A DNA stretch of 64,000 bases from Halorussus pelagicus (GTDB taxonomy: Archaea > Halobacteriota > Halobacteria > Halobacteriales > Haladaptataceae). The notes below the pieces were generated by a model, which saw nothing but the letters and a program-made list of their open reading frames with translations, was not told where the DNA came from and did no database searches. The position numbers and the translations under genes were made by a program. This document shows positions 2,959 through 60,824 of the stretch, in pieces. The first letter of the stretch is position 1. Every line of letters begins with the position of its first letter. The stretch spans positions 806,001-870,000 of the forward strand of contig NZ_CP035119.1 in the NCBI RefSeq assembly GCF_004087835.1, read 5' to 3'.

Positions 2959-4206
2959 ATGAATCCCGGCGACCGCGTCCGCGTCCAGCGGGCCGACCAG
3001 ACCTACGAGGGCGTACTGCTCCCCTCCACGACGAGCCAGAACCTCGTCGTCAAGCTAGAGGGCGGCTACAACGTGGGCATCGACCGCGAGGACGCCGACG
3101 TGGACGTACTCGAAAGCGACGTGTACGACATCGAAGACGGCGACGCCGACGAGGAGTCGTCGGTCGAGTTCGACCCCGACCTGCCGACCATCTCGCTCAT
3201 CTCGACCGGCGGGACCATCGCCTCGACCGTGGACTACCGCACCGGCGCGGTGACCGCGCAGTTCGACGCAGAGGACGTGCTTCGGGCCGTTCCGGACCTC
3301 GCGGGCCGGGCGAACTTCCGGGGCCGGGTCGTCGCCAACATCCTCTCGGAGAACATGACTCCCGACGTGTGGCAGGACCTCGCCGAGGCCGTCCGCGAGG
3401 AAATCGAGGACGGCGCGGACGGTGTGGTCGTGATGCACGGCACCGACACGATGCAGTTCACCGCGTCGGCCCTCTCCTTTATGCTCGACACGCCGGTGCC
3501 AATCGTGTTCACCGGAAGCCAGCGGTCGGCGGACCGACCCTCCTCGGACAACGTGATGAACGCGGTCTGCGCCGTCGAGGCCGCCAAGGCCGACGCCGCG
3601 GAGGTCATGGTCTGCATGCACGCGACCGAGAGCGACGACGCCTGCGCGCTCCACCGCGGCACCCGCGTCCGGAAGAACCACACCTCCCGGCGCGACGCCT
3701 TCGAGACGGTCGGCGCGAAACCGCTCGGCGAAGTCGAATACGCCAGCGGAGAAGCGTCGGTCGATTTCCGCCGAGACTACGCCGAGCGCGGCGAGACCGA
3801 CCTCTCGCTGTCGCCGGACCTCGAAAGCGAGGTCGAACTGCTGAAGTTCACGCCCGGCATGGACGAGTCGGCGCTCGACATGGCGGAGGGCAAGGCCGGT
3901 CTCGTCCTCGAAGGCACCGGTCTGGGCCACGTCCACTCCGACTGGGCCGACCGCATCTCGGAACTGGTCGATTCGGGCACGACGGTCGTCATGACCAGCC
4001 AGTGCATCGAGGGCCGGGTCTGCGACCGAGTGTACGACACCGGTCGGGACCTGCTCGATGCGGGCGTCGTGGAGGGCGAGGACATGCTCCCCGGCACCGC
4101 GAAGGTGAAACTGATGTGGGCGCTGGCCAACGGCGACGAACCCGAGACCACGGTCCGGACCCCTCTCGCGGGCGAGATAACTGACCGGTCGGTCCCGTGG
4201 GAGTGA
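2959..4206 (+). CDS. gatD: Glu-tRNA(Gln) amidotransferase subunit D
   Basis: 415 residues, the usual length for GatD. In archaea GatD is the asparaginase-like subunit that releases ammonia for GatE, which converts Glu-tRNA(Gln) to Gln-tRNA(Gln). An N-terminal beta-barrel domain (residues 1-60, GDRVRVQRADQTYEGVLLP) precedes the asparaginase fold. The catalytic motifs are visible: STGGTIAS with Thr86 after G84-G85, and the MHGTDTM motif with Thr162-Asp163. gatE is not in the window, which is normal because the two are often unlinked. The ATG at 2959 is preceded by GGAGGT only two bases away, too close to act as a ribosome site, and by a weak TATA-like element about 27 nt upstream, so leaderless initiation is likely. 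Confidence 0.95.
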   Translation: MNPGDRVRVQRADQTYEGVLLPSTTSQNLVVKLEGGYNVGIDREDADVDVLESDVYDIEDGDADEESSVEFDPDLPTISLISTGGTIASTVDYRTGAVTAQFDAEDVLRAVPDLAGRANFRGRVVANILSENMTPDVWQDLAEAVREEIEDGADGVVVMHGTDTMQFTASALSFMLDTPVPIVFTGSQRSADRPSSDNVMNAVCAVEAAKADAAEVMVCMHATESDDACALHRGTRVRKNHTSRRDAFETVGAKPLGEVEYASGEASVDFRRDYAERGETDLSLSPDLESEVELLKFTPGMDESALDMAEGKAGLVLEGTGLGHVHSDWADRISELVDSGTTVVMTSQCIEGRVCDRVYDTGRDLLDAGVVEGEDMLPGTAKVKLMWALANGDEPETTVRTPLAGEITDRSVPWE

Positions 4207-4215
4207 GGTGGTACG

Positions 4216-5148
4216 ATGAGTAGCATGCACGCGGGCGTCGAGGTTCGAGAGGCCCGCCACGACGATTACGACGAGATAGCGGCGTTCACGCAGGATACGT
4301 GGCCCGAGCGCGACGGCGGCGACTACATCCCGGACATCTACCACGACTGGATAGACGGCGAGGACAAGCGCACCGCCGTCGCCGTGGTGGACGGCGAAGT
4401 TGCGGGTCTCGCTCAGGCCGTCATGCTGTCGGACTGGGAGGCGTGGAATCAGGGGATGCGCGTCAACCCCGAGTTCCGGGGCCGAGGCGTTAGCGTCAAG
4501 GTCAGCGAGGACCTCTTCGAGTGGGCGCGCGAGCAGGGTGCGACCATCGCCCGGAACATGGTCTTCTCGTGGAACGCCGCGGGACTGGGCCAGTCGCGGG
4601 CGATGGGCTACGACCCCGTGACGGAGTTCCGGTGGGTCCATCCCGACCCTGCCAGCGCCGACGCCGACGCGTCGGCGTCCGCGTTCGACGTGACCGCCGA
4701 CCCCCGCGCGGCGTGGCGCTACTGGACCGACAGCGAGGCCCGTGACCACCTTCGAGGTCTCGCGCTCGACCCCGACGAGTCGTGGGCGCTTTCGGAACTG
4801 ACCCGCGACGACCTCCGCACTGCGGCCGACGAGGACGGCCTGTTCGTCGTGCAGAACGACGGAACCCGCGGGTTCGCTCACCGAGTCCGAGAGTACGAGC
4901 GCGATTCGGACGCGAACGGAACCGACGAATCCGTGCAGTGGATCGAGTACGGCGTCGGCGCGTGGGCCGACGCCGAGAGCGCCGACGCGCTGTTCGACGC
5001 GATAGCCCGCGACGCCGCCGACCGCGGGGCCGACCGGACGCGAGTGTTGGTCCCCGAGACGACCCGAGTTGTCAGCGACGCGGCGCTCTGCCGGGTCGAA
5101 ATCGCCGACGAACCCGACTTCGTGTTGGGCGCGGACCTGACCGCCTGA
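4216..5148 (+). CDS. GNAT-family acetyltransferase, double-domain
   Basis: 310 residues. An N-terminal GNAT domain has the acetyl-CoA loop in NPEFRGRGVSVKVSEDLF (about residues 92-109). The C-terminal half, about residues 150-310, looks like a second, degenerate GNAT-type fold without a clear Q/RxxGxG loop. The substrate is unknown. It starts 9 bases after the gatD stop, behind GAGGTGGTACG, a reasonable ribosome-binding site, so it is probably co-transcribed with gatD and translated from an internal site. The same 12-base context GGTGGTACGATG precedes purU in this window. Confidence 0.85.
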   Translation: MSSMHAGVEVREARHDDYDEIAAFTQDTWPERDGGDYIPDIYHDWIDGEDKRTAVAVVDGEVAGLAQAVMLSDWEAWNQGMRVNPEFRGRGVSVKVSEDLFEWAREQGATIARNMVFSWNAAGLGQSRAMGYDPVTEFRWVHPDPASADADASASAFDVTADPRAAWRYWTDSEARDHLRGLALDPDESWALSELTRDDLRTAADEDGLFVVQNDGTRGFAHRVREYERDSDANGTDESVQWIEYGVGAWADAESADALFDAIARDAADRGADRTRVLVPETTRVVSDAALCRVEIADEPDFVLGADLTA

Positions 5149-6782: not shown

Positions 6783-6904
6783 AGCCGGGCGTTGGCGGCG
6801 GGCGGCCTTTGTTCCATCGCTCTCCGGGACGACGACGATATTTCGCTCGCACTCACGACACGAATCCAGAAGTCCGGAAGAAGCGAGCGACAGGCTTGAG
6901 CGAT

Positions 6905-7051
6905 GGAGTCACCGCAACCGCACAGCACCGCATCAGCCTCACGCCTCCCCAACCCCCTCCATCGCTCCTTTCAGTCGCTCAGTCGTCCCTCGCGCGGAAG
7001 GTCGCGGCGCGCAGTCGCGCGCCGCGCCCTCACGCGCCGACGTGGAAAATT
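6905..7051 (+). repeat. Dispersed intergenic repeat, copy 1 (forward, lacks the GCTAGC end)
   Basis: This gap contains the conserved blocks ACCGCAACCGCACAGCACCGC, GCCTCACGCCTCCCCAACC and TCAGTCGTCCCTCGCGCGG in the order found in the other copies. A 10-bp perfect hairpin follows (arms 7003-7012 and 7017-7026, loop AGTC), then ACGCGCC and GTGGAAAAT. The GCTAGC terminus present in the other copies is missing here. It sits between the 3' end of the membrane paralogue gene and the start of samp1, with the hairpin end nearest the 3' end of the upstream gene. Confidence 0.75.
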
Positions 7052-14389: not shown

Positions 14390-14577
14390 GCTAGCTACTG
14401 CCGACGCAGAGGAGTCACCGCGACTGCACCGCGCCGCACTGCGACTACACAGCACCGCGACCGCAGGCCTCACGCCTCCCCAACCTCTTCTTTCACTCCC
14501 TCCGGTCGTTCAGTCATCCCTCGCGCGGTTGGTGCGACGGCGCAGGTGTGCCGTCGCACCAGCACGCGCCGGGAAAT
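14390..14577 (+). repeat. Dispersed intergenic repeat, copy 2 (forward, complete)
   Basis: A complete copy. It has GCTAGCTACTGCCGAC at 14390-14405, then GGAGTCACCGCGACTGCACC, GGCCTCACGCCTCCCCAACC and TCAGTCATCCCTCGCGCGGTT. An 11-bp hairpin follows (arms 14531-14541 and 14550-14560), then AGCACGCGCCGGGAAATA. It occupies most of the 395-base gap between the PfkB kinase (5' end) and the DUF63 gene (3' end). The hairpin end points to the 3' end of DUF63. The other 150 bases of the gap hold the kinase promoter region and nothing else I recognise. Confidence 0.85.
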
Positions 14578-17167: not shown

Positions 17168-17247
17168 GCTAGCTTCAGGCGTGACCAAATCATGACCGCA
17201 CCCTCCGCACACCACCGCATGGGCCTCACGCGCCCAACTGGAAATCG
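17168..17247 (+). repeat. Dispersed intergenic repeat, copy 7 (internally deleted)
   Basis: GCTAGC (17168-17173) is followed by GACCGCACCCTCCGCACACCACCGCA and GGGCCTCACGCGCC, then CTGGAAAT. The central blocks and the hairpin of complete copies are missing, as if deleted between the GCCTCACG block and the terminal GCGCC. It lies between the Nudix gene and tgtA. Confidence 0.5.
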
Positions 17248-22129: not shown

Positions 22130-22308
22130 CTCACTTGCCGACGAGTCCCGCGAGCAGGCCAACACCGACCCGCGCGAAGGATGACTGAGCGACCGGAGGG
22201 AGAGAGAAGAGGTCGGGGAGGCGTGAGGCCCGCGGTTGCGGTGCTGTACGGAGTGATGCGGTTGCAGTGCGTCGCAGTGTGGTTTGATTGGCATCGGCAG
22301 TAGCTAGC
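22130..22308 (-). repeat. Dispersed intergenic repeat, copy 3 (reverse)
   Basis: On the minus strand this copy reads GCTAGCTACTGCCGATGCC (22308 downward), CGCATCACTCCGTACAGCACC, GGGCCTCACGCCTCCCCGACC and TCAGTCATCCTTCGCGCGGG. The region corresponding to the hairpin is present but its palindrome is poor. It begins 8 bases after the GNAT stop, with the hairpin end nearest that stop, as in most copies. Confidence 0.8.
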
Positions 22309-30878: not shown

Positions 30879-30913
30879 CGACTGCGGAGCGAATATCGGA
30901 CGAAGGTGCGGTC

Positions 30914-31128
30914 TGATTGGTGTTGGCAGTAGCTAGCACAGCTACGGTTGAAGGTACAGAGAAGCTAGCTGTTGCCGACGCCGAGGAGTCACCGCACCGC
31001 GACCGCACAGCACCGGGCCTCGTCCTCCCCACCCGCTTGCGGTCCTCGGCCACGGGCCTGCGGTCCTCAGCCCTCGCGCGGTTGGCGGACCACGAGGGTC
31101 CGCCAGCGCGCGCCGAGAAGACGAGGGG
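30914..31128 (+). repeat. Dispersed intergenic repeat, copy 4 (forward, with head-to-head inverted start)
   Basis: GGCAGTAGCTAGC (30925-30937) and GCTAGCTGTTGCC (30964-30976) form an inverted pair around a 26-base spacer containing GAAGGTACAGAGAA. Forward blocks follow: GGAGTCACCGCACCGCGACC, CACAGCACCGGGCCTCGTCCTCCCC and CCTCGCGCGGTTGG. A 9-bp hairpin (arms 31083-31091 and 31097-31105) precedes AGCGCGCGCCGAGAAGA. The middle is filled by GCGGTCCTC repeats. The left side carries a short reverse-orientation stub ending CTGATTGGTGTTGGCAG. It fills the gap between VanZ and RaSEA. Confidence 0.85.
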
Positions 31129-31215: not shown

Positions 31216-32301
31216 ATGAGCAAGCCGACGCCCGACGTGTACGAGCAGGGGAGGGGCATGGACGCCCACAACAAGGTGATGCGCGAGATTCGCGCGGAGA
31301 AAGACAAGACCTACGACCCCCACGAACCCACGCGGGTCTGGATAGACGAGGACCGCACCCCCGGCGGCGTCTACCAGAGTCTCACCATCATCCTCAACAC
31401 CGGCGGGTGTCGCTGGGCGCGCGCCGGTGGGTGTACGATGTGTGGCTACGTCGCCGAGTCCGTCGAAGGTGGCTCCGTGGCTCACGAGGCGCTAATGGAC
31501 CAAATCGATGTTTGTCTCGACCACGAACGGGACAAAATCGAGGCGGGCGAGGCCGACGGGAAGTCCGGTCTCATCAAGATTTACACCTCCGGGTCGTTCC
31601 TCGACGAACGCGAGGTCGGCGCGGAGACCCGCCAAGCCATCGCCGAGACGTTCGCCGACCGCGAGCGAATCGTGGTCGAGAGCCTGCCCGACTTCGTGGA
31701 GCAGGACAAAATCGAGGACTTCACCGCGCAGGGCCTGAACACCGACGTGGCCATCGGTCTCGAAACCGCGACCGACCGCGTGCGCCACGACTGCGTGAAC
31801 AAGTATTTTGACTTCGAGGACTACATCGAGGCGAGCGAGCAGGCCGAAGCCGCCGGGGCCGGAATCAAGGCCTATCTCCTGATGAAGCCGCCGTTCCTCA
31901 GCGAGTCCGAGGCCATCGAGGACATGAAGTCCTCAGTGCGCCGCTGTGCCGAGTACGCCCACACCGTCTCGATGAACCCGACCAACGTCCAGCGCTACAC
32001 GATGGTCGATCAGTTGTACTTCCGGGACGGCTACCGCCCGCCGTGGCTCTGGTCGGTCGCCGAAGTGCTGGAGGACACCGCCGACGCCGACGCCATCGTG
32101 GTCTCGGACCCGGTGGGCCACGGGTCCGACCGCGGCCCGCACAACTGCGGCGAGTGCGACGACCGAGTGCAGAAGGCCATCAAGGACTTCGACCTCCGCC
32201 AAGACCCCTCGGTCTTCGAGGAAGTCTCCTGTGAGTGCGAGGCGACGTGGGAAGCCGTCGTGGAGCGCGAGAAGGGCTTTAGCCTGCCGCTGGCGCGGTA
32301 A
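31216..32301 (+). CDS. raSEA: Archaeosine synthase radical SAM subunit (RaSEA)
   Basis: 361 residues. RaSEA is the radical SAM partner of ArcS: it cleaves the lysine adduct on preQ0-15 tRNA to leave the formamidine of archaeosine. The iron-sulfur ligands lie in GGCRWARAGGCTMCGY, with Cys65, Cys73 and Cys76, a wider spacing than the canonical CxxxCxxC and consistent with this family. IKIYTSGSFLDEREV and GLETATDRVRHDCVNK are typical of the TIM barrel. The C-terminus has Cys residues (HNCGECDD and SCECEATW) that may bind metal. With tgtA and arcS in this window the late archaeosine pathway is complete. A TATA-like element 27 nt upstream suggests leaderless translation. Confidence 0.92.
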   Translation: MSKPTPDVYEQGRGMDAHNKVMREIRAEKDKTYDPHEPTRVWIDEDRTPGGVYQSLTIILNTGGCRWARAGGCTMCGYVAESVEGGSVAHEALMDQIDVCLDHERDKIEAGEADGKSGLIKIYTSGSFLDEREVGAETRQAIAETFADRERIVVESLPDFVEQDKIEDFTAQGLNTDVAIGLETATDRVRHDCVNKYFDFEDYIEASEQAEAAGAGIKAYLLMKPPFLSESEAIEDMKSSVRRCAEYAHTVSMNPTNVQRYTMVDQLYFRDGYRPPWLWSVAEVLEDTADADAIVVSDPVGHGSDRGPHNCGECDDRVQKAIKDFDLRQDPSVFEEVSCECEATWEAVVEREKGFSLPLAR

Positions 32302-37709: not shown

Positions 37710-37925
37710 CATCGTCGGCGCGCGCGAGCAACGCGTGCGAGGGATGAGGACCGCAGGTCGGAGCGAAGCGGAGACCGAGGACCGCAATCGGTTGGGGAGG
37801 ACGAGGGTGCGGTGCTGTGCGGGGCGGTATGATAGGAGTCGGCAGTAGCTAGCGCATTCTCGATGAAAGTACGGAGAAGCTAGCTACTGCCGATTCCAAG
37901 GAGTTGACCGCGACCGCCCCGCGAG
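37710..37925 (-). repeat. Dispersed intergenic repeat, copy 5 (reverse, with perfect inverted centre)
   Basis: GGCAGTAGCTAGC (37841-37853) and GCTAGCTACTGCC (37879-37891) form a perfect 13-bp inverted repeat around 25 bases that include GAAAGTACGGAGAA. To the left is a nearly complete reverse-oriented element ending in a GC-rich imperfect hairpin near 37715-37740. To the right is only the start of a forward element (AAGGAGTTGACCGCGACCGCCCCGC). GCAGGTCGGAGCG..GACCGAG (37753-37779) is identical over 27 bases to copy 6. It fills the gap between the convergent arylsulfotransferase-like and purC genes. Confidence 0.88.
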
Positions 37926-52940: not shown

Positions 52941-53112
52941 GATATTTCCCGGCGCGTGCTGGCGCGCGCAGTTCTGCGCGCGCCAACCGCGCGAGGGACG
53001 AGTAGCGCAGGTCGGAGCGAAGCGGAGACCGAGCAACGCAGGAGGCTGGGGAGGCGTGAGGCCGTCGCGGGGCTGTGCGGTTGCGGTATGAGTGGTGTCG
53101 GCAGTAGCTAGC
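52941..53112 (-). repeat. Dispersed intergenic repeat, copy 6 (reverse, complete)
   Basis: On the minus strand it reads GCTAGCTACTGCCGACACC, ACCGCAACCGCACAGCCCCGC and GGCCTCACGCCTCCCCAGCC, then a CGGTCTCCGCTTCGCTCCGACC module, CCCTCGCGCGG, a 12-bp hairpin with a two-base loop (52960-52985) and AGCACGCGCCGGGAAATA. The hairpin end faces the 3' end of the upstream membrane gene. The rest of the 336-base gap contains the deoC promoter. Confidence 0.88.
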
Positions 53113-60714: not shown

Positions 60715-60824
60715 GTCTCGTCCATCGGCGAGGAGGGTTTAGGTTCCCGCGGTTTCGACGGGATTCGTTCGACGCGAAGAGAAAGGTATCTTTTCAAGTG
60801 TCGCCCCTTTCAGGAGGGACACGA

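What the first reader, a model, noticed from the sequence alone, without database searches (positions are those of the whole stretch)
52960..52985. Repeat hairpin changes sequence but keeps its pairing (compensatory variation)
The terminal stem differs between copies yet stays paired: 10 bp at 7003-7026 (CGCGGCGCGC arms), 11 bp at 14531-14560 (GGTGCGACGGC arms), 9 bp at 31083-31105 (TGGCGGACC arms) and 12 bp at 52960-52985 (TGGCGCGCGCAG arms). The flanks (CGCGCGGTTGG and AGCACGCGCC) are conserved. Free sequence with preserved pairing implies selection on a folded RNA or a cruciform rather than on the bases.
Basis: seen in the sequence. Interest (0 to 1): 0.62.

Follow-up and report, generated by a model that had tools for sequence, protein, structure and literature searches.

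The report
Haloarchaeal modular repeat with self-copying hairpin
A short non-coding DNA element scattered between the genes of salt-loving archaea ends in a hairpin whose two arms nearly always change together, and the pattern of change looks more like DNA replication copying one arm onto the other than like ordinary selection on an RNA, which is a warning for how 'compensatory changes' are read.

Summary
The four stems are copies of the terminal hairpin (H3) of a roughly 150-200 bp intergenic element, with about 45-50 copies in this 3.5 Mb Halorussus genome. Relatives occur across Halobacteria (Halorubrum, Halosimplex, Halobium, Haloparvum, Haloarchaeobius). It has no Rfam hit and I found no paper describing it.

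In 439 distinct H3 hairpins from 12 Halorussus genomes, over 90% have perfect stems, with 226 different left arms. Re-dealing the arms drops pairing from 96% to 47%.

The inference 'therefore selection on a folded RNA' does not follow. G.U pairs are almost absent (at most 0.7% on either strand, against 5.8% in tRNAs). In a 53-sequence alignment no pair changed on one side only, while 160 cells changed on both. About half of single-pair swaps cannot pass through G.U. Loops occur inverted (11 pairs against 1.5 expected). This is the signature of arm copying by replication template switching.

Neighbouring hairpins H1 and H2B keep a strand-specific tandem G.A mismatch that arm copying would erase, so they do indicate selection on a fold. 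Best label: REP/BIME-like modular element, outside the tagged REP families.

The parts
52951..52996 (-). Terminal hairpin H3 of copy F (the finding): conserved outer stem CGCGCGG../..CGCGCC and variable perfect 12-bp stem TGGCGCGCGCAG/CTGCGCGCGCCA
52950..53112 (-). Copy F, whole element: GCTAGC tag (53107-53112) - CCGCA-rich stretch - core CCTCACGCCTCCCC (53048-53061) - H1 - H3
   Evidence: G000 match 858943-859077
6891..7038 (+). Copy A: CAGGCTTGAGC-type tag, core 6937-6950, H1, H3 6988-7038
14390..14570 (+). Copy B: GCTAGCTACTGCCGAC-type tag, core 14468-14481, H1, H3 14519-14570
30964..31114 (+). Copy C, with H3 31072-31114; a partial second copy lies head to head at about 30905-30937 (minus strand)
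   Evidence: the pair is conserved in relatives
37719..37853 (-). Copy D, a short H3 variant (GCGCGCGCGAGCAACGCGTGCG); a partial head-to-head copy starts at 37879 (+)
   Evidence: pair conserved in G007 and G009
22175..22308 (-). Copy E: tag and core present, H3 lost or degenerate
17168..17236 (+). Remnant: tag, CCGCA stretch and truncated core; H1 and H3 deleted. G007 and G009 have full elements at the orthologous place

Best explanation
The four hairpins are the terminal hairpin (H3) of one modular, non-coding, non-autonomous intergenic repeat family of Halobacteria that resembles bacterial REP/BIME or BOX elements. Shown: each full copy runs tag - CCGCA-rich stretch - core CCTCACGCCTCCCCAACC - hairpin H1 - optional H2 - CCTCGCGCG - H3 - CGCGCC. 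Shown: both arms of H3 nearly always change together, leaving almost no wobble or single-arm intermediates, with all types of base-pair swap, and loops are found inverted. Inferred: the joint change is made at the DNA level. Replication pauses at the palindrome and the polymerase copies one arm from the other (template switching), which rewrites an arm or flips the loop in one event; whole hairpins are also swapped between copies as cassettes through the conserved flanks. Inferred: selection, or the way the element spreads, keeps a hairpin at this place but not a particular sequence. The strand-specific G.A mismatches in H1 and H2B suggest that the minus strand is the one that folds in use, as RNA of a 3' region or as single-stranded DNA during spread.
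For: Stems: 396 of 437 perfect, 45 non-Watson-Crick of 4198 positions, 226 distinct left arms. Wobble: G.T 8-12, A.C 18-28, other 19-28 in 4198-4307 positions, against 25 G.T in 428 tRNA pairs from the same taxa (Fisher p 3e-18 plus strand, 3e-13 minus strand). Alignment of 53 distinct hairpins: 0 cells changed on one side, 160 on both. Neighbouring stems: 125 differ by one whole base pair, 23 by one arm only; 68 of the 125 are swaps that cannot pass through G.U. Loop inversion: 11 stem-loops in both orientations, 7 within one genome, null mean 1.5, 0/1000. Arm homogenisation plus spacer inversion is the described outcome of template switching between inverted repeats (PMC8604942), and template switching can create and maintain perfect stems (PMC8794818). 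Cassette exchange: the same long H3 stem sits beside different H1 and tag modules in L039, L042, L049 and L054, and orthologous copies carry different hairpins. Dispersed element.
Against: No single event has been observed between very close strains; the relatives compared are separate species, so arm copying is inferred from the end states. Mismatches are slightly strand-biased (A.C over G.T, pooled p 0.0005), which arm copying alone does not predict, though transcription-linked cytosine damage would. In H1 and H2B the TC/TC mismatch (GA/GA on the minus strand) is kept through many stem sequences (71 elements against 10 with the mirror form), so arm copying cannot be the whole story for the element. 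The nearest-neighbour counts treat related sequences as independent.
Confidence: 0.55

Rival explanations
1. H3 is an RNA hairpin under selection: the element is transcribed on the minus strand as part of the 3' region of the gene that ends next to H3 (terminator, stability or processing signal), and compensatory mutations keep it folded.
For: H3 lies next to a gene 3' end more often than a 5' end (66 to 41, p 0.02; own genome 27 to 13), with a median distance to the stop codon of 62 nt. G.A tandem mismatches and the A.C over G.T excess both point to the minus strand. Hairpins lie near many RNA 3' ends in Haloferax volcanii, and one tested hairpin terminated 59% of transcripts (PMC7237163).
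Against: G.U is at most 0.7% of pairs on either strand; no one-sided changes in 53 sequences; over half of single-pair swaps bypass G.U; loops invert freely. 18 of 107 copies sit between divergent genes. No Rfam family. Two congeners have almost none.
Confidence: 0.2
2. H3 is a DNA structure recognised by shape, as a cruciform or as a single-stranded hairpin bound by a transposase or architectural protein, so Watson-Crick pairing is selected in DNA and the sequence is free.
For: Near-perfect Watson-Crick pairing, no G.U excess, tolerance of loop inversion, one element boundary exactly at the foot of H3, presence or absence at orthologous sites, strand-specific mismatches in H1 and H2B as in single-strand transposition signals.
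Against: No resident Y1 (IS200/RAYT-type) transposase in the element-rich genomes G001, G002, G003, G010. Copies within a genome are mostly about 70-90% alike, and I found no clean recent insertion or target duplication.
Confidence: 0.2
3. The stems are unrelated palindromes that happen to have inserted at the same frame, or chance inverted repeats in GC-rich DNA.
For: Stems differ greatly in sequence; GC-rich DNA makes short inverted repeats common.
Against: The frame, position and order of modules are conserved in hundreds of copies. Re-dealt arms pair at 47%, and sliding the partner by 1-3 columns leaves 26-43% paired.
Confidence: 0.02

Closest known systems
Bacterial REP / BIME elements (GTAG- and CGTC-tagged palindromes; PMC3733652, PMC2817692)
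   Same: Extragenic, tens to hundreds of copies, stems that vary with complementary changes between families, head-to-head pairs, mosaic composites, lineage-specific abundance.
   Different: About 150-200 bp with several hairpins and a conserved 18-nt unpaired core; the hairpin lacks a GTAG or CGTC tag; no RAYT/Y1 transposase in element-rich genomes; archaeal. The phyla listed for GTAG/CGTC families in the passages read are all bacterial, and the archaeal species in the RepRanger survey (PMC12306157) include no haloarchaea.
PATEs, SMRs and MITEs of Haloquadratum walsbyi (PMC3119063)
   Same: Short transposase-free repeats in a haloarchaeon; PATEs carry near-terminal palindromes.
   Different: PATEs have palindromes near both ends related to IS605 elements, with some types over 90% identical; here copies are mostly 70-90% alike and the palindrome is at one end. 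No terminal inverted repeats as in MITEs or SMRs were seen.
BOX elements of Streptococcus (from general knowledge, not tested)
   Same: Modular boxA-boxB-boxC design with variable internal modules.
   Different: No sequence relation was sought; covarying free stems are not a listed feature as far as I know.
Template-switch hairpins (PMC8794818, PMC8604942)
   Same: Multi-base compensatory change in one event, arm homogenisation and spacer inversion.
   Different: Described in rRNA genes and yeast coding genes; here it would act repeatedly on a dispersed repeat, giving hundreds of natural replicates.

Membership tests
Bacterial REP (GTAG/CGTC-tagged) | High-copy palindrome in extragenic DNA | tested here: met
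   2 to 101 frames per Halorussus genome; only 1 of 108 tested copies lies inside a predicted gene
Bacterial REP (GTAG/CGTC-tagged) | GTAG or CGTC tag at the foot of the hairpin | tested here: not met
   Foot of H3 is CCTCGCGCG/CGCGCC in the copies collected, with nothing conserved beyond it in Halorussus
Bacterial REP (GTAG/CGTC-tagged) | Associated RAYT (Y1 transposase) gene, for the RAYT-linked classes | tested here: not met
   PF01797 absent from G001, G002, G003, G010, which have 43-101 frames
PATE (palindrome-associated transposable element) | Palindromes near both termini, related to IS605 ends | tested here: inconclusive
   H3 is terminal at one end; the other end is a GCTAGC tag without a strong stem. 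IS605 ends were not compared
PATE (palindrome-associated transposable element) | Strain-specific insertions with defined boundaries | tested here: inconclusive
   Presence or absence at orthologous sites, but junctions are blurred by intergenic divergence and remnants
Structured RNA family (Rfam) | Match to a curated family | tested here: not met
   No match at gathering score; best sub-threshold E 0.048 at 20 bits against a cut-off of 56
Structured RNA family (Rfam) | Transcription and folding in the cell | not testable with these tools
   No expression or probing data available
Template-switch (quasipalindrome) product | Arm homogenisation and spacer inversion | tested here: met
Template-switch (quasipalindrome) product | Two-arm change seen as one event between close strains | not tested
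   No pair of very close strains was compared

The most novel reading that the evidence does not exclude
A class-wide, undescribed archaeal repeat in which a palindrome rewrites itself: replication template switching continually regenerates new perfectly paired stems, so the element keeps its shape without conserving sequence, while neighbouring hairpins built of alternating Watson-Crick dinucleotides and tandem G.A mismatches show that the minus strand is used as a folded single strand.
Probability: 0.35. Interest if true: 0.75.

Novelty: new variant of a known kind. Interest (0 to 1): 0.55.

Why it matters
Covariation is usually taken as the best sequence evidence for a functional RNA. Here is a large natural data set (439 hairpins, 226 arms) in which covariation is very strong yet the usual marks of RNA selection are missing and the marks of DNA arm copying are present. 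It can be used to measure how often template switching makes 'compensatory' changes, and to calibrate covariation tests. The element itself is widespread in haloarchaea, was unannotated in the three plasmid records checked, and affects how their intergenic regions, 3' ends and annotations should be read.

Tried and rejected
Rfam: nothing. A resident Y1/RAYT transposase as motor: rejected, absent from four element-rich genomes. Virus, phage or plasmid origin: no core match in IMG/VR, no match in phages, only Halorussus megaplasmids among plasmids. Chance palindromes and unrelated insertions: rejected. A conserved TATA-like motif beyond H3 in Halorubrum looked promising by eye, but only 8 of 32 sequences have TTATAA within 45 nt, so it was dropped. 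Clean empty sites with target duplications were sought at orthologous loci; junctions were too diverged or held remnants. MAFFT misaligned some equal-length hairpins, so I removed those and realigned. The mirror (GA on plus) control ended in a division error in my script that is consistent with zero hits; I rely for that contrast. Literature searches found no description of this element; the library lacks most subscription journals.

Full report
Observation. The frame CCTCGCGCG-N-CGCGCC occurs at exactly those four places in the window against 0.41 expected, and each folds far better than shuffled sequence. The flanks also pair with each other, so each hairpin has a conserved outer stem and a free distal stem.

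What it belongs to. Each hairpin is the last part (here called H3) of a longer intergenic element. Read in one direction a full copy is: a tag, either GCTAGCTACTGCCGAC or GCTAGCTTCAGGCTTGAGC; a CCGCA/CCGCG-rich stretch; the core CCTCACGCCTCCCCAACC; a hairpin region H1; an optional pair of hairpins H2A and H2B; CCTCGCGCG; H3; CGCGCC. In Halorussus nothing is conserved beyond the foot of H3. The genome holding the window (3.49 Mb) has 55 BLAST matches to the element and 28 non-overlapping copies of the strict H3 frame. That the window is from Halorussus is inferred from the named records that share the element and architecture.

Distribution. 23 of 30 relatives have matches, including several other families. 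The core was not found in IMG/VR, and the element was not found among phages; among plasmids only Halorussus megaplasmids match. Copy number differs widely among congeners, from 2-3 frames (G008, G013) to 101 (G002). At orthologous intergenic sites of five Halorussus genomes some copies are shared, some missing, and some reduced to remnants.

Covariation. In 136 hairpins from four genomes, 96% of the first ten stem pairs are Watson-Crick; when arms are re-dealt among hairpins the figure is 47%, maximum 53%. In 439 distinct hairpins from 12 genomes, 396 of 437 parsed stems are perfect, with 226 distinct left arms. On 53 equal-length hairpins, 98.7% of cells pair against 57.4% after shuffling, the covariation score is 0.924 against 0.162, and all nine pairs vary on both sides. 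Both H1 and H3 of the other genera also have free but paired stems.

What the covariation means. Four features separate H3 from an RNA stem kept by stepwise compensation. First, G.U is nearly absent: 8-12 G.T and 18-28 A.C (which is G.U on the other strand) in more than 4000 positions, against 25 of 428 in tRNAs of the same taxa. Second, no pair in the 53-sequence alignment has a one-sided change while 160 cells are changed on both sides. Third, of 125 pairs of stems that differ by exactly one base pair, 68 differ by a swap that cannot go through G.U, and only 23 pairs of stems differ by one arm alone. Fourth, 11 stem-loops exist with the loop in both orientations, seven of them within one genome, against 1.5 expected and never more than 5 in 1000 shuffles. 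Arm homogenisation with spacer inversion is the described product of template switching between inverted repeats (PMC8604942), and this process can create and maintain perfect hairpins (PMC8794818). I therefore judge DNA arm copying the likeliest source of the joint changes. The step is inferred: no single event between near-identical strains was seen.

Cassette exchange also acts. The same long stem occurs beside different H1 and tag modules in four own copies (L039, L042, L049, L054), copies at orthologous sites carry different hairpins, and each genome has its own common loops, for example AAACCGC in G005 and G010.

A second signature. H1 and H2B show something arm copying would erase. Their stems contain TC opposite TC, that is tandem GA opposite GA on the minus strand. 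It is kept while the neighbouring base pairs vary: 71 of 176 elements have it, against 10 with the mirror form. Where two such mismatches are spaced by two bases, the intervening dinucleotides are exact complements in 42-64% of 64 cases, against 14-30% of the 37 background matches; that background set includes windows holding elements, so it is a conservative control. Tandem G.A pairs are stable in both RNA and DNA (general knowledge). This strand preference, the A.C over G.T excess, and the position of H3 beside gene 3' ends (66 to 41, p 0.02) all point to the minus strand. They suggest that the element folds as a single strand in use. They do not say whether as RNA or as DNA.

Function. The most conservative reading is a REP/BIME-like repeat. 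It behaves like one (extragenic, many copies, paired head to head at some sites, biased to 3' ends) but fails two defining features of the known tagged families: no GTAG/CGTC tag, and no Y1 transposase in four element-rich genomes. Hairpins can terminate transcription in Haloferax (PMC7237163), so a role at 3' ends is possible but unproven.

Limits. Copies were found by a frame that fixes both flanks, so hairpins with damaged flanks are under-sampled. Gene calls come from a simple codon-usage score. Counts treat related copies as separate. The Halorubrum set is small, and the library of papers lacks most subscription journals.

Noticed in passing
window 30905-30979 and 37839-37893; L145, L146, L150, L153: Two elements often lie head to head with their GCTAGC tags about 25-32 nt apart, and the pair upstream of the radical-SAM-like gene (31216-32301) is kept in many congeners.
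   Followed up: partly
G008 and G013: Two Halorussus genomes have almost none of the elements (2 and 3 frames) although close relatives have 26-101, as if the family had been purged or never amplified there.
   Followed up: no
H1 and H2B modules, for example L026, L049, L060; lists: Hairpins made of alternating Watson-Crick dinucleotides and tandem G.A mismatches (minus strand), often ending in a GAA loop; the dinucleotides covary. This may explain the common haloarchaeal GAGCGAAGCGAG sequences.
   Followed up: partly
L099, L109, L124, L154, L156; window 60803-60813: A second intergenic repeat family, GACTGAAAGGGGCCGCCCG ... CGGGCGGGGGCTTTC; its half GGCCCCTTTCAGTCC is joined to the core of this element in L230. 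The window has one short match.
   Followed up: no
L193-L272, Halorubrum copies: In Halorubrum the part before the core is replaced by GACTGCCCCTTTGAGTCCCACCCC, and the foot of H3 continues as CGCGCCACCGC.
   Followed up: no
Each genome has its own dialect of loops and outer stems (for example GGTCG...CGACC in G017, AAACCGC loops in G005/G006/G010), which suggests homogenisation among copies within a genome.
   Followed up: partly
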